Shown: positions 14,101-36,675 of the stretch, piece by piece
How positions within the stretch are numbered: the first letter of the stretch is position 1
How the letters are laid out: the number at the start of each line of letters is the position of its first letter
Source: Pseudobutyrivibrio ruminis CF1b
Lineage (GTDB): Bacteria > Bacillota > Clostridia > Lachnospirales > Lachnospiraceae
Assembly: GCF_000424005.1 (NCBI RefSeq)
Contig: NZ_AUJB01000011.1
Coordinates: 1 to 64,000 of the forward strand
Direction: 5' to 3'
Length of the DNA stretch: 64,000 bases
Program-made: the position numbers and the translations under genes
The notes under the pieces: model-generated
Database searches by the model: none
Told to the model about the DNA's origin: nothing
What the model saw: the letters and a program-made list of their open reading frames with translations, nothing else

Positions 14101-14352
14101 GTAGAGGTTATCGAAAACCATACTGGTGGTGGCTATGATCTTGTAAGAGCCGAGTTAAATGGTGAAGGAACTGTTAGAGAAGATAAATCAGTACTGTTAA
14201 CTATAGAGGAAGATAAAACAGCAGAAGTTAAGTTTACCAACAAATATAATTATAAAGATATTTATGGAAGCATAAGTATCACAAATGTATTTGATAAGGT
14301 TACCAAAATTCTGGACCGATTGATTGAAGTAGTAGAGGAGGTACAGCGATAA
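11170..14352 (+). CDS. Secreted fibro-slime/SpaA surface protein without sorting signal (unit I)
   Basis: The 1060-residue protein begins with a signal peptide ending near VYA. A Gly/Asp/Asn-rich linker runs from about 30 to 160. A Cys-X2-Cys type motif lies near 197-215 and is shared with the VWA adhesin at 25853. A fibro-slime domain covers about 515-700 (FGMMLPINF, SGDDDVFVYID). A SpaA-like domain with the E-box ETKAPDGY lies near 783-877, and a DUF5979-like beta domain near 915-1027. Unlike its paralogue at 17825 it has no LPxTG or membrane tail; the end resembles that of the 31241 protein. The ATG at 11170 follows GGGAG, and an upstream in-frame ATG at 11089 lacks support. It probably forms or binds an extracellular structure. 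Confidence 0.75.
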   Translation: MRNFYKGRLLSLVLVFMLVMASSIGVYADGDGTDLPPVITEENENAPQNDNPTQGEPGVGQKIDGQSDDGQQNNENDGKKDDQPAGEGADGNSGGNDAGQPAEGTGGSSDGQDPGDETGKKIEDEGVPTSGDTPTEKPERDPEEHNKDLESPYEEDGITLRDGFYEGWMSNWDGTHYRVIYKNDNKEYHYDLGQAPVKCTNFDESGIVCLDCGYKRELENLEEETKTVDIQADCEGFLASAQVPEDAFGEGIDVSKVKFSAKIITLDGAEDAVKSAYGISGVDKYVVLDLEFTYEGTVIKPNKAVKIGIADLEFAPEKIAHFDENNNASDVSFGITEDGIIYFSSSEFSPYMFFTVLSEELEPTDNVLYDDEYGKGTTPNNKHFTGERTATELFSPDRYAVRLYNYNSGNGIALIAPKTENRFFVYGGENSPNFDFEFEAPENYYIAAVYQANAETQEVYKTFPATEKYQQKVSLSLELNRMGEGEKPVVNDIVVSITAIPVEWAEDESTTTVAGATFVNYRNFADNLGSNFIFNGGHGGGSNECYPVQVYQGLANEKLVDGVFSVKNGNGNVPFPKASEYDKDDSKYSYISEYIPDAKVKFKKDTDGYWTMDSSLDRYELNSENELVPVGGEKQFRPFGQDDHFGMMLPINFSINSDGLSNGKDTIFKFSGDDDVFVYIDDTLVLDLGGIHDAIKGQINFTTGEILIQGDCASKLSSSINGTVYQNISLGDQNIYKTLYDSDVRTGIRNLSTGEHVLTVVYFERGAFLSNCRISYNFNKDEPVDIEFEGLKVKSDMSPLAGAEFRLYKDEKCEKPVEGKVATSDSNGTIKFKGLSLGVFTSSVHELPPKYFYLKETKAPDGYILPENAVWELKVIAKADGTTNKTLKAVTDDAKKVSVKTSSDSQNVKAIKNLKPGKLKISKKLSSYYKTGGTATFTFEVYYKIGDKEYSDVYPISFDNPGTKVVVDEIVIPAGVEVEVIENHTGGGYDLVRAELNGEGTVREDKSVLLTIEEDKTAEVKFTNKYNYKDIYGSISITNVFDKVTKILDRLIEVVEEVQR

Positions 14353-14879
14353 TGAGTAAGAAGAAAACATTATTAATTGCCGCTGCACTTCTGATGCTGA
14401 GCGTAGTGGCAGTAAAGCCAGCGATGGCCTATTTGACAGATACACATTCTACAAATGGTGGAGCCGCAGTTTATCTTGAGGACAGAAGAATAGAGATTAT
14501 TCCAAAGGAGCGTATTGAAGAGAATACTAAAGTTATCTCAGTTGAAAATACTGGTGATCTTCCAGTGTTTGTAAGAGTAAAAGTAATTGCTGGAAGAACA
14601 CATCTTTTGGAACTTGATACTGAGAAGTCAGATTCCGGATGGAGCTATAACGAAGATGATGGCTATTACTATTACAGCGATATTTTGGAAGTTGAGAAAA
14701 CCTCAAAGGATTTATATGTAAAGATAGCTCCAGGTAATTCAGCAGAAGAAAAGTTTAATGTAATAGTAGTTGCTGAAGCAGCCAGACCTTTATCTGACGG
14801 AAGCGCTGGAGATTGGGAAGGCAAGATAGCTCAGGAAACTAATACATATGATCCAGCACAGAATGAAGGAGGTAATTAA
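14352..14879 (+). CDS. SipW-class secreted protein (TasA/camelysin-like), unit I
   Basis: The 175-residue protein has a signal sequence ending in AMAYLTDT, the form typical of substrates of SipW-type signal peptidases (compare TasA, camelysin). The mature part is a beta-rich domain with NTGDLPVFVRVKV and a Tyr-rich GYYYYSD stretch. Its paralogue at 32289 keeps both (HYPIFVRAM, DYYYYTK). The start codon overlaps the preceding stop as TAATG, so the genes are translationally coupled. By analogy with TasA it may be a fibre subunit or an assembly partner. The exact role is not known. Confidence 0.6.
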   Translation: MSKKKTLLIAAALLMLSVVAVKPAMAYLTDTHSTNGGAAVYLEDRRIEIIPKERIEENTKVISVENTGDLPVFVRVKVIAGRTHLLELDTEKSDSGWSYNEDDGYYYYSDILEVEKTSKDLYVKIAPGNSAEEKFNVIVVAEAARPLSDGSAGDWEGKIAQETNTYDPAQNEGGN

Positions 14880-14881
14880 TT

Positions 14882-15655
14882 ATGAAGATTAATTTAAAGA
14901 ATCCTTTATTCATATTTGGTGTAGGTGCACTGCTTGTGGCAGGTAGTTTCCTTGGTGCTACAAATGCAGCAGGTACTCCAACAAGGGAAAAGGTTGAGTT
15001 TAAGACAGTTCAGATTGGGGTTGAACTACAAGAGGATATAAGCACTGATTCAGAAGAATCTAATTACGTGAAAGTAGATGGAGATGGAGCGCTGGCGCTG
15101 AAGTCCCTGGATGCAGTTAAAGATGGTTCAGAGATTATGGAGCCTGGCAATCAATATCCAGAGCGAGTTCGTGTACTTAATAACTCACCTACTGAAGGAG
15201 AAGCTCCAGAGTATGTTCGAGTGGTAGTAAGAAAGTACTGGATAGATGATTCGGGAAACAAAGACACACGAATAGATCCATCAGTTATTCAATTGCTGGC
15301 TACAGATGATTGGGGTGCGGTAGCATCGCCATCAGGAGAAGAAGTTATTTACTATTGCAAGAAACCTATTAACAAAGGTGAAAGCAGTCAGGTAATAGAG
15401 TCAGTTTCATTTGAAAAAGATATTGAGAAATATTTGTATTTAATGAAGGCAACACAGACAACCACAAGGACTGATACAGAAGAGGGTATTATCATCGAAA
15501 GCTTCAGAACCTATGGCGGTCAGAAGTTTGTTGTTGAAATGAAAGTAGATGCCGTTCAGGCTCACGGAGCAGAACAGGCAATGCTTGGAGCCTGGGGTGT
15601 CAATGCCAAGTTCGAAGGAGACATCCTTAAATCTATTGATGGGGAGACCTTATAG
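14882..15655 (+). CDS. Secreted GATxAA-signal protein, unit I
   Basis: The 257-residue protein has a short hydrophobic signal segment ending in LGATNAA, followed by VEFKTVQIGVEL. The pattern is shared with the 32816 protein (VGATRAA, VNFKTATFDVEI). Both contain EYVRVVVRKYW-like strands and end with an A-I/M-x-AWG motif. The family resembles small secreted beta proteins common in Lachnospiraceae SipW clusters. There is no membrane tail. It starts 2 bp after the previous gene, behind GGAGG, and probably assembles with its operon neighbours outside the cell. Function is unassigned. Confidence 0.55.
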   Translation: MKINLKNPLFIFGVGALLVAGSFLGATNAAGTPTREKVEFKTVQIGVELQEDISTDSEESNYVKVDGDGALALKSLDAVKDGSEIMEPGNQYPERVRVLNNSPTEGEAPEYVRVVVRKYWIDDSGNKDTRIDPSVIQLLATDDWGAVASPSGEEVIYYCKKPINKGESSQVIESVSFEKDIEKYLYLMKATQTTTRTDTEEGIIIESFRTYGGQKFVVEMKVDAVQAHGAEQAMLGAWGVNAKFEGDILKSIDGETL

Positions 15656-15669
15656 GAGGAGAGCAGAAT

Positions 15670-16527
15670 ATGAAAAAAACAATATTTAATATAGTTCTTG
15701 CTCTTACTCTTGTAACCGCAGGAATCTCAGGTCTGAAACTTAATGCAAATGCAGAGACTATTCCAAGGGGATGGACAGTTACTTATACAGGAATGGATGA
15801 AGATAAGAATCCTGTATTTACTTCTACCTATAGCTCAGATTATAGGGAGATAGATAATGCTATGCCTGGTGATACGATTGAATACACCATCACTTATGTA
15901 AATGCCACTGATGAAGAGGCAGACTTTTACATGAATGCCAATGTACTTGATTCATTAGAAGATAGTAACAGCGGCGGAGCATATTCTTATAGAATCACTA
16001 ATAATGATAAGGATTTATTCAATAGCAATACTGTAGGTGGAGATGGTGCAGCAGTTGTTGGTCTTAAGCAGGTTAGTGGAAATAGTGGATTGTATTTTTC
16101 ACTTGGAACAGTTGGAAAGAAATCTGCAACAACTCATTCCGGAAAAGTTAAGGTCTTAATTCAGTTAGATGGTGATTCACAGCTTAACAGCTATGGAAAC
16201 AAGGATGCGTCACTTGAATTCTTCTTTAAGGCTGAACCTACATCTTCAGCTGTAGAGAAGAGAACTACCACAATTGTTAAGCAACAAGAAATGTCAAAGG
16301 AGGTTTCAGTTAGCCAACAGAAGTCAATAGTTAAGCAGATAGTAAAGACACTGGATAACGGCACAGAGATAGTTGAGATTGACGATGACAATGTGCCTCT
16401 TGCTGGTCCAGCTACAGGAGATTCTATTTTACCTTCAGCAATCTGCAGCGTGATGTTTGCCCTTGGTATGTGTCTGATCTTCTATTCTGTTGCAATCAGT
16501 ATTAATAAGAAAAGGAGGGAAGCCTAA
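15670..16527 (+). CDS. Surface protein with GPATGD sorting signal, unit I
   Basis: The 285-residue protein has a signal peptide ending near NANA. A beta-rich domain contains MPGDTIEYTITYVN and DADFYMN-like motifs. A Gln/Lys/Val-rich linker follows (about 200-235). The tail is PLAG, GPATGD near residue 246, a hydrophobic segment and a basic end. This resembles sorting signals used by class B sortases rather than LPxTG. Paralogue: 33556. Its anchor is probably attached by the signal peptidase-sortase fusion encoded at 35437, since unit I has no sortase of its own. That link is inferred. Confidence 0.65.
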   Translation: MKKTIFNIVLALTLVTAGISGLKLNANAETIPRGWTVTYTGMDEDKNPVFTSTYSSDYREIDNAMPGDTIEYTITYVNATDEEADFYMNANVLDSLEDSNSGGAYSYRITNNDKDLFNSNTVGGDGAAVVGLKQVSGNSGLYFSLGTVGKKSATTHSGKVKVLIQLDGDSQLNSYGNKDASLEFFFKAEPTSSAVEKRTTTIVKQQEMSKEVSVSQQKSIVKQIVKTLDNGTEIVEIDDDNVPLAGPATGDSILPSAICSVMFALGMCLIFYSVAISINKKRREA

Positions 16528-24701: not shown

Positions 24702-25538
24702 ATGAAGTTTTTTGATATTAAGAAGAATATGGTGGCTTTTGCCCTTGCAGCAGTTGTGGCTGTAGGTTGTGCTGATGCAATTGACGTTCATGCTGCAGAG
24801 CCTGTTAACACAAATGCAACAGTTAACATTACCGCTCAGGTTGGTAAGGATGATGCATCTGTCTTTGCAAAAAGCTATACCGGAACAGTTGATATTAATT
24901 TGTATAAGATAGCAGTCATTGATGAGACAGGTAAGCCACAGCTTTCAGATTCATATCAGAATTGCGGAATTGATATTACAGTCCTTAATAACAGCCCAAA
25001 GGTTGCTGATATCGAAAAGAATATAGTAGAGCCAGCTGTTCAGGCAGTAAACGGTAAGCAGCCTGATGCAGTTATTACAGCATCAAGAAAAGATGGTTCT
25101 ATTTCAGGCAAGGTTTCTATAGCCAGTGGAGCAGGTGTTTACCTTTACATTCCACAGCCTGTTTCAGATGAGAAATATAAGTATAATTTTGTGCCATATA
25201 TTATCTTTGCCCCAACAAGTGATTATGTTGTTAGCGGTGTTGCAGGCGCAGATGAGACATGGAAATACGATGTTAGCTTTATTATTAAGCCACAGGAGAC
25301 ACCGATAATAGTGGAGCAGCCTCCTCATGATCCAACAACACCTCACGAAGATGAAATAGTAGAGTGGGGCGAGGAGATTATCGAGATGGAGTCGCCTCTT
25401 GTGCCATTGGCAGGACCAAAGACAGGAGATTCACTCATTCCAATGATTCTTTGTGGATTAGCACTTTTATTTGGATTAGGATTAATCGCTTGGTATTTTA
25501 GCCTTGTAGCTGGAAATAAAAAAGTAGTAGAAGAATAG
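24702..25538 (+). CDS. Surface protein with GPKTGD sorting signal, last gene of unit II
   Basis: The 278-residue protein has a signal peptide ending near VHA, then a beta domain with TGTVDINLYKIA and GAGVYLYIP. The 31241 protein has the same motifs (TGKITIDLYKIA, GAGLYLYVP), so the two are paralogues. A Pro/Glu-rich linker is followed by VPLAG, GPKTGD (near 238), a membrane segment and a charged tail. The signal is of the (G/N)PxTGD type, not LPxTG. This suggests a different sortase from the two class C enzymes just upstream, perhaps as a wall-anchored pilus base. Confidence 0.65.
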   Translation: MKFFDIKKNMVAFALAAVVAVGCADAIDVHAAEPVNTNATVNITAQVGKDDASVFAKSYTGTVDINLYKIAVIDETGKPQLSDSYQNCGIDITVLNNSPKVADIEKNIVEPAVQAVNGKQPDAVITASRKDGSISGKVSIASGAGVYLYIPQPVSDEKYKYNFVPYIIFAPTSDYVVSGVAGADETWKYDVSFIIKPQETPIIVEQPPHDPTTPHEDEIVEWGEEIIEMESPLVPLAGPKTGDSLIPMILCGLALLFGLGLIAWYFSLVAGNKKVVEE

Positions 25539-31240: not shown

Positions 31241-32263
31241 GTGATTAAAGTTAGTTTAAGAAGAAAAGGTCTAATAGGAATAAGCATGGCGCTAGTGTTA
31301 TGTATTCTGGGAGTGGGAGTGCATACCATTAGAGCTGCTTCAGCAGTGGATACAGATGCCAATGTAACTATTACTGCTGAGGTTGATACTACTTCTGCAT
31401 TGGCCATGAATTATACAGGCAAAATTACTATTGATTTGTATAAGATAGCCAGCATGGATGTCACTGGTGATGTTAAGACTTTGGAGGATGGATTTAAAAA
31501 CTCAGGAATTAATCTTTCAATTCTTAAAGATAATCCTACCGTTGCCACTGTTGAAGAATCAATCGTAAACAAGGCATTAGCCGTTGTGGATGGAGTTACT
31601 CCAACAGCAACAATCACAATTGACAGAAGAACAGGTCAAAGTAGTGGATATGTTTCTATTCCTAAGGGTGCAGGCCTTTACTTATATGTACCATCAGCTG
31701 AGGACAGAAGATACTTATATGAATTTACATCATATGTACTCTTTGCTCCTACAAGCCAGTACATCACACCAAGAGATAATTATGAAGCAGATGAGGGAAT
31801 GCCTTTAGATGAATGGAAATATGATGTTAAATTTGGACTTAAGTCAAATCAGGTGCCAAAGCTGGGAACACTGATTATTGAAAAGAAGTTGGATGATTAC
31901 AACGAAAGTTTAGCAGCAGCATCATTTGTATATAAGGTAAAAGCTCAGATTGATGAAAAAGTAGTATTTGATGATGTTGTTACTATAGAGTTTGAAAGTG
32001 CTGGGACACAACAGATAGAGCTTGAAATACCAGCAACAGCCACAGTTACTGTAGAAGAGGTATATACAGGTGCAAGTTACGAATTAGCATCAAATAAGGT
32101 AGTGAATGATTTAGTAATCGAAGCTGGTGGCGAGTCTACAGCGAGATTCGAAAACAGATACGATGAAGAAAAAATGATTTCAGGCGGTATAAGTGCTGTG
32201 AATACATTTGTGAAACGAGACGGTGAATATGTGCATGTGGGTATGGATGATATTCCACAATAG
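31241..32263 (+). CDS. Secreted pilin-like protein fused to a DUF5979-like domain, unit III
   Basis: The 340-residue protein has a signal peptide ending near RAASA. Its first 200 residues are homologous to the 24702 protein (YTGKITIDLYKIA, GAGLYLYVP, FAPTS). From about 205 to 310 it carries a beta domain like that at the end of the 11170 protein. It finishes with GGISAVNTFVK, matching GSISITNVFDK there. There is no membrane tail or sorting signal. The start is a GTG behind GGGAG at good spacing. The domain mosaic suggests it replaces a fixed anchor with a module for non-covalent assembly. Function is unknown. Confidence 0.6.
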   Translation: MIKVSLRRKGLIGISMALVLCILGVGVHTIRAASAVDTDANVTITAEVDTTSALAMNYTGKITIDLYKIASMDVTGDVKTLEDGFKNSGINLSILKDNPTVATVEESIVNKALAVVDGVTPTATITIDRRTGQSSGYVSIPKGAGLYLYVPSAEDRRYLYEFTSYVLFAPTSQYITPRDNYEADEGMPLDEWKYDVKFGLKSNQVPKLGTLIIEKKLDDYNESLAAASFVYKVKAQIDEKVVFDDVVTIEFESAGTQQIELEIPATATVTVEEVYTGASYELASNKVVNDLVIEAGGESTARFENRYDEEKMISGGISAVNTFVKRDGEYVHVGMDDIPQ

Positions 32264-32288: not shown

Positions 32289-32804
32289 ATGAAAACAAAA
32301 TGGTTATATTTAGTTGCTGCAGTAGCATTAGTAATTAGTATATCTGCAGTAAAGCCTGCTTTAGCATACTTCACAGCAACAAGGACTGTAGAGGGAACCA
32401 CCAAAGCATTAGAGATTGGCGATGTTCCACCGGAACTGGATGAAGATGTTGTGGAAATGACAAAGATGATTACAATCACCAACAATGGTCATTATCCAAT
32501 TTTTGTAAGAGCGATGGCCATTTCTCCAGACAATTGGCAGGTGAATTTCAATCCAGAAGATGGATGGATACAGGAAGGTGATTATTATTACTACACAAAG
32601 CCACTTGCTCCTGAAGAGTCAACTGCAACACAGTTGAAATTGGATATTGTTCCAAAGCAGGTGGATCAGGAATACGATGTTCCAGACAGCTTTAACGTAG
32701 TAATTGTTCAGGAAGCAACAAAGGTTATTTACGACGATGCAGGCAATCCTATTCCTGATGATTGGGCAAACGCAATTAGCAATAGTATCAATGTTGGAAG
32801 ATAG
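32289..32804 (+). CDS. SipW-class secreted protein (TasA/camelysin-like), unit III
   Basis: The 171-residue paralogue of the 14352 protein has a signal sequence ending in ALAYFTAT, the SipW-type form. The mature part has ITITNNGHYPIFVRAM and GDYYYYTKPL. It probably is a beta-rich extracellular subunit whose signal is cut by the SipW-like half of the 35437 protein, four genes downstream. It lies 25 bp after the previous gene with a GAGG site. Confidence 0.6.
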   Translation: MKTKWLYLVAAVALVISISAVKPALAYFTATRTVEGTTKALEIGDVPPELDEDVVEMTKMITITNNGHYPIFVRAMAISPDNWQVNFNPEDGWIQEGDYYYYTKPLAPEESTATQLKLDIVPKQVDQEYDVPDSFNVVIVQEATKVIYDDAGNPIPDDWANAISNSINVGR

Positions 32805-32815
32805 GAGGGAATAAT

Positions 32816-33541
32816 ATGAAAAAATTTTATAAGAACCCTCTGGTGCTTTTAACATTGGGATTGCTGGTAATTGGAGCCAGCACAGTGGGAGCCACGAGAG
32901 CCGCAATGATTTCCCAGTCAGAAGCTGACAGAGTAAATTTTAAAACAGCTACCTTTGACGTGGAAATTACAGGAGATGTTGATAATGGTCAGATTCAATT
33001 CAAAGAGATTGATGAAGACGAGTCAATAAAAATTGGAAAGCTTTATAAAGAAAATATTTCGGTGAAAAATACTTCTGGCGGAAACTACGATGAATATATT
33101 AGAGTGGTTGTACGAAAGAGCTGGAAGAGTGAGTCAGAGGATGGTGAATACAGAAAGAATCTTTCACTAACTCCTGCACTTATTGAAATTGAGGTTGAAC
33201 CAGGCTGGTACATTAATGATGATGAATCAACTGACGAACAGACAGTGTACTACAGACTTACACCAGTAGCTCAGAATGAAGAGGTTCCTTTTATTTCAGG
33301 AATTAGGGTAAATGATAAAGTTATAAGGGAAGTTCAGCATGGTGGAACATCTACAACAATCACCAATGAATATTCTTATAATGGCGCATGTATGGATATT
33401 TCTATTCAGGCAGATGCAGTTCAGACAAACAGTGGAAGAGATGCTATAAGCGCTGCCTGGGGTATTAAAGATTCATTTGCAGGTATAGACGTATCAACAG
33501 GAAACAAATCAACAGTCAACTTTGTTATTGAAGACGAATAA
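32816..33541 (+). CDS. Secreted GATxAA-signal protein, unit III
   Basis: The 241-residue paralogue of the 14882 protein has a signal segment ending in VGATRAA. It is followed by VNFKTATFDVEI, then EYIRVVVRKSW, and ends near AISAAWGIKDSF. There is no membrane tail. The shared signal form suggests processing by the same SipW-like peptidase as its neighbour. It starts 11 bp after the previous stop behind AGGAGGG. Role unassigned. Confidence 0.55.
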   Translation: MKKFYKNPLVLLTLGLLVIGASTVGATRAAMISQSEADRVNFKTATFDVEITGDVDNGQIQFKEIDEDESIKIGKLYKENISVKNTSGGNYDEYIRVVVRKSWKSESEDGEYRKNLSLTPALIEIEVEPGWYINDDESTDEQTVYYRLTPVAQNEEVPFISGIRVNDKVIREVQHGGTSTTITNEYSYNGACMDISIQADAVQTNSGRDAISAAWGIKDSFAGIDVSTGNKSTVNFVIEDE

Positions 33542-33555
33542 GAAAGGGGCAAGCG

Positions 33556-34368
33556 ATGAAAAAGAGAATAATGAATTTAGTCCTTGCTCTGGCTCTGACA
33601 GTAGTAGGACTGGCAGGACAAAATATTACAACAGAGGCAAAGACACATACAACCAGTTGGCCAGTCACATACGACGGAAATAAAGTTACATCAAAGTTTT
33701 CTGAAAATGTGACTAATGCAACCATGTCTGCAGTAATGCCTGGTGATACAGTCATTTATGAGATTGATTACAGCACATCAGTTGATGCGGATTTCTATCT
33801 CAATGCAGATATTATTAATTCTCTTGAGGAAAGAGATGCAAATGATAACGAGTCATACGAGGCTACAGAAGGTGCTTATACTTATATCATTAAAAATGGT
33901 GATCAGGTTATCTGTGACAGTGAATTAATCGGTGTTTCTGACGAAGCGGATCTTATTAAAGGTCTTAAGCAGGTGGACGGTGGGGATAAGTTTTTCGAAC
34001 TTGGACGTCTTCCAGCAGGTGGAAGTGGAAAAGTAACTATTTCAATTACTCTCGATGGAAACTCTCAGGACAATTCATATATGTACAAACTGGCCACTCT
34101 CGATATTAAGATTGGCGCACAGGCAGCCCCTAAAAACGTTGTTAATCACAAGCCTGGAGCTTCAAGGAAAGTTGTTTATACTGTACCTGGTGGAACGGAA
34201 ATTGTGTCAATCACAGATCCTGACACACCACTTGCAGTGGTTAGAAATAATCCACAGACAGGAGATATGATTGCTCCTATCTTAGTATGTACAACAGGAC
34301 TGATATTGGGATTTCTTATAATTGCCATTTATTTTTCTATAGTTTTCAAGCAAAGAAGCAGGAGGTAG
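33556..34368 (+). CDS. Surface protein with NPQTGD sorting signal, unit III
   Basis: The 270-residue paralogue of the 15670 protein has a signal peptide and the MPGDTVIYEIDY and DADFYLNADI motifs. The linker contains TPLAVV, followed by NPQTGD near 232, a membrane segment and an RSRR tail. NPQTG-type signals are the classic substrate of class B sortases (SrtB of Staphylococcus uses NPQTN). The only class B-like sortase in the window is the fusion protein at 35437, so it is the natural partner. That pairing is inferred. Confidence 0.68.
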   Translation: MKKRIMNLVLALALTVVGLAGQNITTEAKTHTTSWPVTYDGNKVTSKFSENVTNATMSAVMPGDTVIYEIDYSTSVDADFYLNADIINSLEERDANDNESYEATEGAYTYIIKNGDQVICDSELIGVSDEADLIKGLKQVDGGDKFFELGRLPAGGSGKVTISITLDGNSQDNSYMYKLATLDIKIGAQAAPKNVVNHKPGASRKVVYTVPGGTEIVSITDPDTPLAVVRNNPQTGDMIAPILVCTTGLILGFLIIAIYFSIVFKQRSRR

Positions 34369-34374
34369 TCTGAT

Positions 34375-35373
34375 ATGAAAAGGATCAATAAACTTACAAG
34401 CCTGCTTTTAGCAACGCTTATAGTGCTTACTGGTGTAATGTCTCTATCGACAGTAGCACATGCAGAATATCTTTATACCATCAGAGTTTATTTAGGTGGT
34501 ATGGGGGATGAGGGAGCATCATTTAAAGATAGCAGTGCCAGCTATATTGATTTCAAAAAAGAGGCTGGTGAGCGATTCGAATTTGACCCTCATGAAGGAG
34601 TTATTATTTCTTCAACAGATGCCAAATATAAGGTTATTGGTGCTAGAAAAAGTGGTGATAACAAGTGTGAAAGCACTATAGATATTGCAGCAGTTACACA
34701 GGATGAGACATATGTTATCGCCTATGGTGTTTATAAAACTATTCCTTATACAGCAGTGTTTGTGGATGAGAATGGTAATGCCATAGTCGATGCAAATGGT
34801 AATCCTGCTACTGATGAAACATATTACGGTATTGACCATACCCAGTTCTATGTTCCATATAAGGAAATTGAAGGATATTATCCTATTAACGGGGAGCGAT
34901 ATAAAGCAGTTACTCTTTCAGAAGCCGGGGAAGTTATTAGATTCGTATATACGAATCGCCCAGGTGATACATACTCAACCTCATATGGTGCAGATTCTGT
35001 AACCTATTCAACTGTTGTAGGTGATCCGACATATACATATCAGACCATCCCTGGAATGCCTGTAGAAGAAGTTGGCATAACAGATAACAGAGCACCAGCT
35101 GGTGGAGGTAATGCAGCAGGTGGAGAGGCAGCAGGAGAAGCCGGTGGAGCAGATGACACTACTACAATTGGTGAGGCGGATGTTCCATTAGGAGGAGATA
35201 CTGCTCCTACAAATATCCCAGAACCTGAAAATCCAAAGGGAAAGGATGAACAGGCATTATTCACAATGTATATCCGTTATCTTATTATCATTGCTGTAAT
35301 CGGCCTGTTGATTGCATTTATAACAATTATTGGAACAATCAAGGTTAATTACGATAAGAACCACAGAAATTAA
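34375..35373 (+). CDS. Membrane-anchored MucBP-like surface protein, unit III
   Basis: The 332-residue paralogue of the 16529 protein has a signal peptide ending near AHA and a beta domain. A MucBP-like module (YTAVFVDENGN, VPYKEIEGYYP) spans about 120-195. A Gly/Ala-rich linker lies near 240-260. DVPLGG and a Pro/Glu-rich spacer come before a membrane segment (about 297-322) and a charged tail. No sortase motif sits next to the membrane segment. It probably remains in the membrane as a base or tether. It is 6 bp after the previous gene and is followed by a terminator. Confidence 0.6.
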   Translation: MKRINKLTSLLLATLIVLTGVMSLSTVAHAEYLYTIRVYLGGMGDEGASFKDSSASYIDFKKEAGERFEFDPHEGVIISSTDAKYKVIGARKSGDNKCESTIDIAAVTQDETYVIAYGVYKTIPYTAVFVDENGNAIVDANGNPATDETYYGIDHTQFYVPYKEIEGYYPINGERYKAVTLSEAGEVIRFVYTNRPGDTYSTSYGADSVTYSTVVGDPTYTYQTIPGMPVEEVGITDNRAPAGGGNAAGGEAAGEAGGADDTTTIGEADVPLGGDTAPTNIPEPENPKGKDEQALFTMYIRYLIIIAVIGLLIAFITIIGTIKVNYDKNHRN

Positions 35374-35389
35374 CACAAAACACTAATTA

Positions 35390-35415
35390 GGGGCGACTTA
35401 ATAGTCGTCCCTTTT
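35390..35415 (+). terminator. Terminator before the signal peptidase-sortase gene
   Basis: GGGGCGACT (35390-35398) pairs with AGTCGTCCC (35403-35411), allowing one G-T pair, followed by TTTT. It separates the structural genes from the processing enzyme gene. Confidence 0.75.
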
Positions 35416-35421
35416 AAAGTG

Positions 35422-35430
35422 TGGTAGAAT
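35422..35430 (+). promoter_or_regulatory. Extended -10 promoter, probable leaderless mRNA
   Basis: TGG plus TAGAAT forms an extended -10 that ends 6 bp before the ATG at 35437. No ribosome binding site is present, so the mRNA is probably leaderless. The spacing equals that before the LytTR regulator. Confidence 0.5.
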
Positions 35431-35436
35431 TTAATT

Positions 35437-36675
35437 ATGGGAAAATTACTTAGAGTATTGGGGAATTGTATAATCATTTTGGTTATTGCAGCATGTCTGC
35501 CACTGGCTATTCCAAGGGCAATGGGAATGCAGGAATATAACGTCATTACAGGGTCAATGACTCCTGAAATACCAATAGGGTCTATAGTGTACGTTAAGCC
35601 TGTTGATTTTAATTCGCTGTCAGTGGGGGATATTATTGCCTTTGATGTGGGAGCAAGTGTGGTTACCCATAGAATAGTTGAGGTAGACGCTGAAAAAAAT
35701 ACACTGACTACAAAGGGAGATGCAAATCCGGCTAACGATTTCATGCCTGTGTCATATACTAATGTCAGAGGAAAAGTTGTTGCCCATTATCCTTTTATAG
35801 GAAATGTGGCTGCAATTATTTCAGAGACTACAGGTAAGATAGGGGCCTTTATCGTCCTTATTGTTGGTGTGCTTCTTTCAAATATTGGTGAGAAGAAGAA
35901 AAAGACTGATGATGAAGAAATCAAAAAGGGCATTAATCCTACAATAATACTTATCACAGGTCTTGTAATTGTGTTTGGCTCTGTAGGTGGATTTATCTAT
36001 ATTTACATGGGATACCAGAAGTCCAACGATTTATATGATTCGTTAGAGCAGACCTACGTTACAAAAGCTGACAATCAGGTGCAGCAGGTGCCATGGCAGG
36101 AGATGATAGATGTGGACATTGCTGCTTTGCAGAACATTAATCCTGATGTGGCTGGCTGGATTTATATAGAAGGAACAGACATCAGTTATCCAATAATGTT
36201 TTCTGGTGATGACGAAAAATATCTTCGCACCACTATAGATAAAGAATACGCTACAGCTGGCAGTATTTTTTTAGAGGGATATAATCTGAAAGATTTTAGT
36301 GACAGTCACAATATAATATACGGTCACAACATGAGAAATCTTTCCATGTTTGGAAAATTGAGATACTACAAGTCAGAGGAAAATTTCTATGACGAGCACA
36401 AATATTTCCAGATTATCACTCCAACTGGAAAGATGAGATATGAAATCTTTTCTTATTTTGATACAGAACCAGCTTCATGGGTTTACACCGTTCCGTATTA
36501 TGATAATCCAGAGTTTCAGGAGTATATTAACAATTTAAATAAGCATTCTTATAGGAAGCTTTCAATTGCTGAAAACGTTACTTCTGCAGACAAAGTTATT
36601 ACCCTTTCTACCTGTTCTGCCCAGGAAATGAGATTTACTCTACACGGTTATTTAATTGATGAAAATTTGTACTAA
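35437..36675 (+). CDS. Fusion of SipW-type signal peptidase and class B sortase
   Basis: This 412-residue membrane protein joins two maturation enzymes. TM1 (about 9-27) is followed by an S26B, SipW/ER-type signal peptidase domain. That domain has S40 in ITGSMTPEIPIGS, H78 in VVTHRIVEV and acidic residues D95/D101; the His in place of Lys marks the ER type. TM2 (about 133-149), a Lys-rich cytoplasmic loop and TM3 (about 168-191) lead back outside. The class B sortase domain (about 215-412) has H297 (IIYGHN), C393 (TLSTC) and R399. Both active sites would face outward. It could cut SipW-type signals and anchor (G/N)PxTGD proteins encoded beside it. It has its own promoter and no ribosome site. 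Confidence 0.9.
   Translation: MGKLLRVLGNCIIILVIAACLPLAIPRAMGMQEYNVITGSMTPEIPIGSIVYVKPVDFNSLSVGDIIAFDVGASVVTHRIVEVDAEKNTLTTKGDANPANDFMPVSYTNVRGKVVAHYPFIGNVAAIISETTGKIGAFIVLIVGVLLSNIGEKKKKTDDEEIKKGINPTIILITGLVIVFGSVGGFIYIYMGYQKSNDLYDSLEQTYVTKADNQVQQVPWQEMIDVDIAALQNINPDVAGWIYIEGTDISYPIMFSGDDEKYLRTTIDKEYATAGSIFLEGYNLKDFSDSHNIIYGHNMRNLSMFGKLRYYKSEENFYDEHKYFQIITPTGKMRYEIFSYFDTEPASWVYTVPYYDNPEFQEYINNLNKHSYRKLSIAENVTSADKVITLSTCSAQEMRFTLHGYLIDENLY

What the first reader, a model, noticed from the sequence alone, without database searches (positions are those of the whole stretch)
35437..36675. Signal peptidase and sortase in one polypeptide
One protein carries an ER/SipW-type signal peptidase (S40, H78) and a class B sortase (H297, C393, R399) with three membrane segments placing both active sites outside. 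It lies next to its likely substrates: two SipW-class secreted proteins and an NPQTGD protein, with paralogues in unit I. Cutting the signal and anchoring the tail of partner proteins could thus be coupled. SipW and SrtB families are known separately; I am not aware of a characterised fusion.
Basis: partly seen in the sequence, partly recalled or inferred. Interest (0 to 1): 0.85.

Follow-up and report, generated by a model that had tools for sequence, protein, structure and literature searches.

The report
Fused signal peptidase and class-B sortase
A rumen bacterium makes one membrane protein that carries both the scissors that free a special set of secreted fibre proteins and the enzyme that fastens a partner protein to the cell wall; the join is real, has arisen several times and appears uncharacterised, but the two activities probably act on different partner proteins and can work unjoined.

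Summary
The 412-aa ORF at 35437-36675 joins a complete SipW/ER-type signal peptidase (res 12-147) to a complete class B sortase (res 169-396); both pass NCBI's curated cut-offs. It is not a frameshift: it is one ORF in about 26 of 29 Pseudobutyrivibrio genomes, and S40/H78/D95/D101 and H297/C393/R399 are invariant in 24 of 24 fusions. It closes a conserved surface-fibre cassette, D-A-B-N-U. A and B carry SipW-type signals; N carries NPxTGD. I favour one membrane enzyme maturing different subunits of one fibre, also in trans for paralogous cassettes. Outside the genus most cassettes have SipW without a neighbouring SrtB, a few an unfused SipW-SrtB pair; fusion arose repeatedly, and one genome has split it into two intact genes. 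Covalent linkage is thus recurrent but dispensable; channelling is unproved. Parallel: in group A Streptococcus a dead signal peptidase (SipA) is essential for class-B-sortase pili, and each half matches that pair structurally.

The parts
35437..36675 (+). SipW-SrtB fusion protein, 412 aa
   Evidence: catalytic residues invariant in 24 fusions
35470..35877 (+). SipW/ER-type signal peptidase half (S40, H78, D95, D101); C-terminal membrane helix included
   Evidence: TIGR02228 91.5 bits in the genome search; SEC11 E 3e-11 with the family profile
35881..35940 (+). cytoplasmic linker between the halves (res 149-168), charged, disordered in the model, no internal ribosome site
35941..36672 (+). class B sortase half with its own N-terminal membrane helix (H297, C393, R399)
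   Evidence: TIGR03064 164 bits; VIA-align Z 25.9 to S. aureus SrtB
35389..35412 (+). terminator-like hairpin between U and the fusion, with two compensatory pairs in 5 sequences
35420..35430 (+). extended -10-like TGTGGTAGAAT just upstream of the ATG; similar sequence in relatives, no Shine-Dalgarno site seen
   Evidence: not above chance in the window by itself
32289..32804 (+). A: SipW-class secreted protein (BsaA-like), cleavage ALA/YFT; likely substrate of the SipW half
   Evidence: TIGR04090 matched by 21 of 23 family members at E<=0.01, this member E 7e-4, below cut-off; P1'-P2' = YF
32816..33541 (+). B: SipW-class secreted beta-sandwich protein; likely substrate of the SipW half
   Evidence: profile match to A (prob 97.6, E 3.6e-12); AF2 beta-sandwich
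33556..34368 (+). N: protein with NPQTGD sorting signal, membrane helix and basic tail; likely substrate of the SrtB half
34375..35373 (+). U: secreted protein with C-terminal membrane helix, no sorting motif
31241..32263 (+). D: secreted DUF5979-like protein, first gene of the cassette
   Evidence: (below cut-off)
14352..14879 (+). A paralogue of unit I (AMA/YLT)
14882..15655 (+). B paralogue of unit I
15670..16527 (+). N paralogue of unit I, GPATGD
24702..25538 (+). further protein with a GPKTGD sorting signal

Best explanation
It is a bifunctional membrane enzyme that matures a surface-fibre cassette. The SipW half removes the special signal peptides of the two SipW-class subunits A and B, which ordinary signal peptidases cut poorly. 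The SrtB half cuts the NPxT/G signal of subunit N and joins N to the cell wall. The two activities act on different subunits of the same structure. The enzyme also acts in trans on paralogous cassettes that lack their own SipW and SrtB. The join arose by in-frame union of adjacent sipW and srtB genes: SipW ends in the cytoplasm and SrtB starts there, so topology is preserved. Shown: the fusion, its conservation, intact active sites, the neighbourhood, the unfused gene pairs and the fission. Inferred: catalytic activity, substrate assignments, wall attachment.
For: Both domains over curated cut-offs; active-site residues invariant in 24 of 24 fusions. Gene order A-B-N-U-fusion in every complete genus locus, apart from one where N and U form one ORF. 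The fusion is the only TIGR02228 protein over cut-off in the genome. A has Y-F at P1'-P2' in 22 of 23 relatives, like the F at P2' of TasA, a signal that E. coli LepB cuts poorly and SipW cuts (PMC10269814). C. perfringens SipW is needed for BsaA secretion (PMC7395162), and A is BsaA-like. Nearly every N protein of the genus has xPxTGD, the motif type of SrtB (NPQTN and the like; own knowledge), while outside the genus N proteins mostly read xVxTGD or similar. Unfused pairs always read SipW then SrtB (8 of 8). Two cassettes in the window and three in G020, each genome with one fusion.
Against: No enzymatic activity was measured. A second class-B-like sortase (L002, 392 aa) occurs across the genus and could anchor N. 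Most non-genus cassettes have N with a TGD signal but no SrtB beside them, so N anchoring can be done by something else there. In C. perfringens a srtB deletion had no effect on BsaA polymers. Whether B depends on SipW rests on family and neighbourhood only.
Confidence: 0.65

Rival explanations
1. Physically coupled assembly station: tethering the two active sites gives channelling or ordered hand-over, so that A and B are released only next to an N being anchored.
For: Fusion is kept across the genus and arose several times (at least 4 label changes forced in the SipW tree and 5 in the SrtB tree by well-supported branches; gains and losses not separable). GAS SipA and its class B sortase show that a signal-peptidase fold can be essential for class-B-sortase pili (PMC4049620).
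Against: G010 keeps separate halves encoded in two different cassettes; pairs elsewhere are unfused; fusions appear to serve other cassettes in trans; the model gives no firm domain orientation (pTM 0.58).
Confidence: 0.25
2. Neutral or merely regulatory fusion: adjacent same-strand genes with matching topology fuse easily, giving fixed 1:1 expression but no mechanistic coupling.
For: Adjacent genes in unfused relatives are mostly -7 to +43 nt apart; N and U, also neighbours, form one ORF in several lineages, one of them explained by a lost stop with an intact internal ribosome site; natural fission in G010.
Against: Independent recurrence of the same join and its retention across a genus at 57-84% identity.
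Confidence: 0.3
3. The signal-peptidase half is a SipA-like chaperone for the sortase and not a peptidase.
For: Fold match to SipA 4n31, Z 11.7 over 92 residues.
Against: SipA has lost its catalytic residues (PMC4049620), whereas S40, H78, D95 and D101 are invariant here, and no other TIGR02228 protein over cut-off exists in the genome to cut A and B.
Confidence: 0.06
4. The sortase half polymerises subunits, as class B pilus sortases of streptococci do, and does not anchor N to the wall.
For: Structural match to Spy0129 (3psq), Z 22.7, a pilus class B sortase; the cassette stands beside pilin genes.
Against: Two class C sortases in unit I can serve the LPxTG pilins; A and B lack sorting signals; S. 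aureus SrtB scores at least as high (Z 25.9).
Confidence: 0.15

Closest known systems
SipW of Bacillus subtilis / sipW-bsaA locus of Clostridium perfringens
   Same: ER-type Ser-His signal peptidase encoded beside SipW-class fibre proteins; a srtB gene flanks sipW in C. perfringens (PMC7395162)
   Different: separate proteins; there srtB lies 5' of sipW and its deletion had no effect on BsaA polymers
Class B sortases (S. aureus SrtB, B. anthracis SrtB, C. difficile SrtB)
   Same: fold Z about 25, His-Cys-Arg triad, NPxT-type signal on a neighbour
   Different: here preceded by a whole signal peptidase with its own two membrane helices
SipA plus class B SrtC of Streptococcus pyogenes pilus (FCT) loci
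   Same: signal-peptidase fold and class B sortase encoded together and both needed for a pilus (PMC4049620)
   Different: two proteins; SipA has lost its catalytic residues (of a Ser-Lys enzyme); the peptidase here is the Ser-His ER type with residues intact
TasA / BsaA fibres
   Same: A matches the BsaA family weakly; SipW-type signal with aromatic P2'
   Different: here in a cassette with a sortase-anchored N protein and next to LPxTG pilins; fold identity of B with TasA not settled

Membership tests
SipW / ER-type signal peptidase (S26B) | over the curated cut-off of TIGR02228 | tested here: met
   87.9 bits against 51.85
SipW / ER-type signal peptidase (S26B) | Ser and His in place of Ser and Lys, plus conserved Asp | tested here: met
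   S40, H78, D95, D101 invariant in 24 of 24
SipW / ER-type signal peptidase (S26B) | cuts SipW-type signal peptides | not testable with these tools
   candidate substrates with Y-F at P1'-P2' adjacent
SipW sensu stricto (Bacillus SipW, NF046067) | over the curated cut-off of NF046067 | tested here: not met
   74.5 bits against 190; so SipW-type, not a Bacillus SipW equivalog
Class B sortase | over the curated cut-off of TIGR03064 | tested here: met
   164 against 153.75 bits
Class B sortase | His-Cys-Arg active site | tested here: met
   H297, C393, R399 invariant in 24 of 24
Class B sortase | SrtB fold | tested here: met
   Z 25.9, 206 residues, rmsd 2.5 to 1qx6
Class B sortase | NPxTN/G-type substrate | tested here: inconclusive
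   NPxTGD or GPxTGD neighbours in the genus, but a second sortase is present
SipA-type inactive signal peptidase | loss of catalytic residues | tested here: not met
   catalytic Ser and His kept in all fusions
BsaA family (neighbour A) | over the curated cut-off of TIGR04090 | tested here: not met
   best E 2.3e-9 in the family; the window member scores 19.4 against a cut-off of 60; related but not filed as a member
TasA fold (neighbour B) | structural match to TasA | tested here: inconclusive
   8aur TMq 0.39, E 0.0097; several unrelated beta-sandwiches score similarly or better; model pLDDT 71

The most novel reading that the evidence does not exclude
Signal peptidase and class B sortase form a functional assembly station for Gram-positive fibres in general; the fusion is its covalent version, and SipA plus SrtC of group A Streptococcus is an analogous form in which the peptidase has become a pure substrate holder.
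Probability: 0.15. Interest if true: 0.78.

Novelty: new variant of a known kind. Interest (0 to 1): 0.52.

Why it matters
Why a signal-peptidase homologue is essential for pili built by a class B sortase has been an open question since SipA was described. A natural covalent pairing of an apparently active signal peptidase with a class B sortase, recurring independently and with a natural split version, makes the question testable: one can ask whether the pair must touch. It also describes a widespread, apparently uncharacterised surface-fibre cassette (D-A-B-N-U-SipW) of gut and rumen Clostridia.

Tried and rejected
Frameshift or assembly error: rejected. Internal start giving separate SrtB: no ribosome-site-like start in 30 of 31 genes. 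Inactive SipA-like peptidase: rejected on residues. Same-protein coupling: looked for cassette proteins with both a SipW-type signal and a sorting signal; none among A, B, N and U. One-ORF N+U proteins seemed to offer a natural substrate for both halves, but in L063 an AAGGAGG site precedes U's own ATG, so it is probably a lost stop. TasA fold of B: inconclusive; integrin-type beta-sandwiches gave the top Z of 7.0 and no TasA entry was in the 50 rows shown. Other long ORFs with a SipW domain are fusions to receiver-like or multi-helix domains and not to sortases. Literature searches for a described fusion found none in the open library; subscription papers are not covered.

Full report
Observation. 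ORF 35437-36675 (+) encodes 412 aa from an ATG, without interruption. Residues 12-147 match TIGR02228 (ER/archaeal-type signal peptidase, SipW group) at 87.9 bits (cut-off 51.85) and residues 169-396 match TIGR03064 (class B sortase) at 164 bits (cut-off 153.75). Pfam sees Sortase over its cut-off and Peptidase_S26 just below it.

Structure. An AF2 model from 24 fusions has mean pLDDT 84 and three membrane-type helices (2-28, 131-148, 168-207); residues 152-165 are disordered and the domain orientation is uncertain (pTM 0.58). The sortase half matches S. aureus SrtB (1qx6) at Z 25.9 and the S. pyogenes pilus class B sortase Spy0129 (3psq) at Z 22.7. Residues 29-124 match S. pyogenes SipA (4n31) at Z 11.7 over 92 residues. 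By sequence the peptidase half finds SEC11 (E 3e-11), so it is of the ER (Ser-His) type, not SipA's own (Ser-Lys-derived) branch. Hydropathy and the charged linker fit N-in, peptidase out, linker in, sortase out. The fusion simply joins a whole SipW, which ends inside, to a whole SrtB, which starts inside.

Distribution. The window lies in a 3.27-Mb genome whose relatives are Pseudobutyrivibrio (named matches: P. xylanivorans DSM 14809 83%, B. fibrisolvens 16/4 70%, P. ruminis DSM 9787 60%). In the genus 25 genomes carry it at 57-84% identity (the window's own included, one cut at a contig end), and G014 a divergent one at 40%; of the other three, G010 has split halves and G015 and G016 are incomplete assemblies. 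Outside the genus it is one ORF in L096, L098, L101, L105, L104 and an Eggerthellaceae MAG, L108. Eight loci have the two genes unfused and adjacent, always SipW first: L048, L050, L055, L100, L102, L106, L110, L139, with gaps of -7 to +43 nt in most (for L050 the gap is about 9 nt by the matches; L139 has 232 nt). Trees of each half put fused and unfused rows among one another: 7 changes of label in the SipW tree and 8 in the SrtB tree, at least 4 and 5 forced by well-supported branches. Gains cannot be told from losses by this count, and L107 lies at a contig end. L101/L105 sit beside the unfused pair L055 in the SipW tree, which suggests a fusion of their own; their genomic context differs too.

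Fission. G010 (RGIG4783) has a unit-I-type cassette ending in SipW alone (163 aa) and a unit-II-type cassette ending in SrtB alone (258 aa). Both group inside the genus fusions, with no remnant of the missing half beside them. Catalytic residues are kept in both. This reads as complementary loss from two paralogous fusions.

Neighbourhood. In genus loci the order is tip or slime protein, LPxTG backbone pilin, class C sortases in some, D, A, B, N, U, fusion, coiled-coil protein. A survey starting from B in 299 Lachnospiraceae genomes (about one per genus) found it in 36. Where neighbours could be read, D-A-B-N-U was kept; it was followed by SipW alone in about 15 cassettes outside the genus (two of these with SipW 1.5-1.8 kb away, one with SipW inside the cassette), by a SipW-SrtB pair in 3 (L048, L050, L210), by SrtB alone in 1 (L208) and by neither in several, some cut by contig ends. 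SipW is therefore the core partner of the cassette and SrtB an addition. G020 has three cassettes and one fusion; the window has two cassettes and one fusion, which is the only TIGR02228 protein over cut-off in its genome.

Substrates. A ends its signal with A-x-A followed by Y-F-T: P1' is Y and P2' is F in 22 of 23 relatives (the cleavage point is predicted from the A-x-A rule). An aromatic P2' helps make the TasA signal poor for E. coli LepB; SipW cuts it in B. subtilis (PMC10269814). A is weakly but widely similar to the BsaA family (21 of 23 members, best E 2.3e-9, below cut-off). B shares a core with A. N has an ordinary A-x-A signal and a C-terminal NPxTGD-helix-basic tail; nearly all N proteins of the genus have P before xTGD, whereas outside the genus V or another residue is usual. 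No cassette protein combines a SipW-type signal with a sorting signal.

Mechanism. I conclude that the enzyme carries out two maturation steps for different subunits of one fibre. Peptidase and sortase activity are inferred from conserved residues; substrates from signals, motifs and gene order; wall anchoring from class B sortase biology. The effect of tethering is unknown: recurrence argues for benefit, fission and trans service argue that it is not required.

Known work. C. perfringens has srtB 5' of sipW-bsaABCRSD; SipW is needed for BsaA secretion, while a srtB deletion leaves BsaA polymers unchanged (PMC7395162). In S. pyogenes SipA, an inactive signal-peptidase homologue, is essential for pilus polymerisation, and no interaction with SrtC or pilin could be shown in vitro (PMC4049620). 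I found no paper on a fusion in the held library.

Expression. Between U and the fusion lies a hairpin (35389-35412) with two compensatory pairs among five sequences, then an extended -10-like element close to the ATG and no evident ribosome site; comparable arrangements occur in several relatives. A standard scan does not call it a terminator, and the -10-like motif is not rarer than chance in the window. It may mean separate transcription of the enzyme; this is a lead only.

Noticed in passing
L186 3375-5381 and 8868-10604; L187 4227-5996; L188 4996-6978; L190 5393-6433; L192 5184-6125: SipW-type peptidase fused behind what looks like a response-regulator receiver domain in Clostridia (ORFs of 313-668 aa).
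   Followed up: partly
L180-L185, L191, L193: SipW-type peptidase at the C-terminus of a multi-helix membrane protein (about 390-430 aa).
   Followed up: no
L196 5225-10186 and L197 5770-10689: Class B sortase as the last roughly 240 residues of ORFs of about 1640 aa.
   Followed up: no
L063 10368-12233, L106 4155-5903, L220 5271-6992: N and U in one ORF, so a sorting signal is followed directly by a signal peptide; in L063 an internal ribosome site before U is intact, in L106 none is evident.
   Followed up: partly
35389-35437: Covarying hairpin and extended -10-like element immediately before the fusion's ATG, hinting at a separate, perhaps leaderless transcript.
   Followed up: partly
L051, L052 (genome G010): Natural complementary split of the fusion between two cassettes.
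   Followed up: yes
L002 901-2079: Second class-B-like sortase of the genome with a long cytoplasmic N-terminal part; a similar one is found in nearly all genomes of the genus.
   Followed up: partly
L108: The fusion occurs in a MAG labelled Eggerthellaceae (Actinomycetota) beside an N-like VQTGD protein; possible transfer or a misbinned contig.
   Followed up: no
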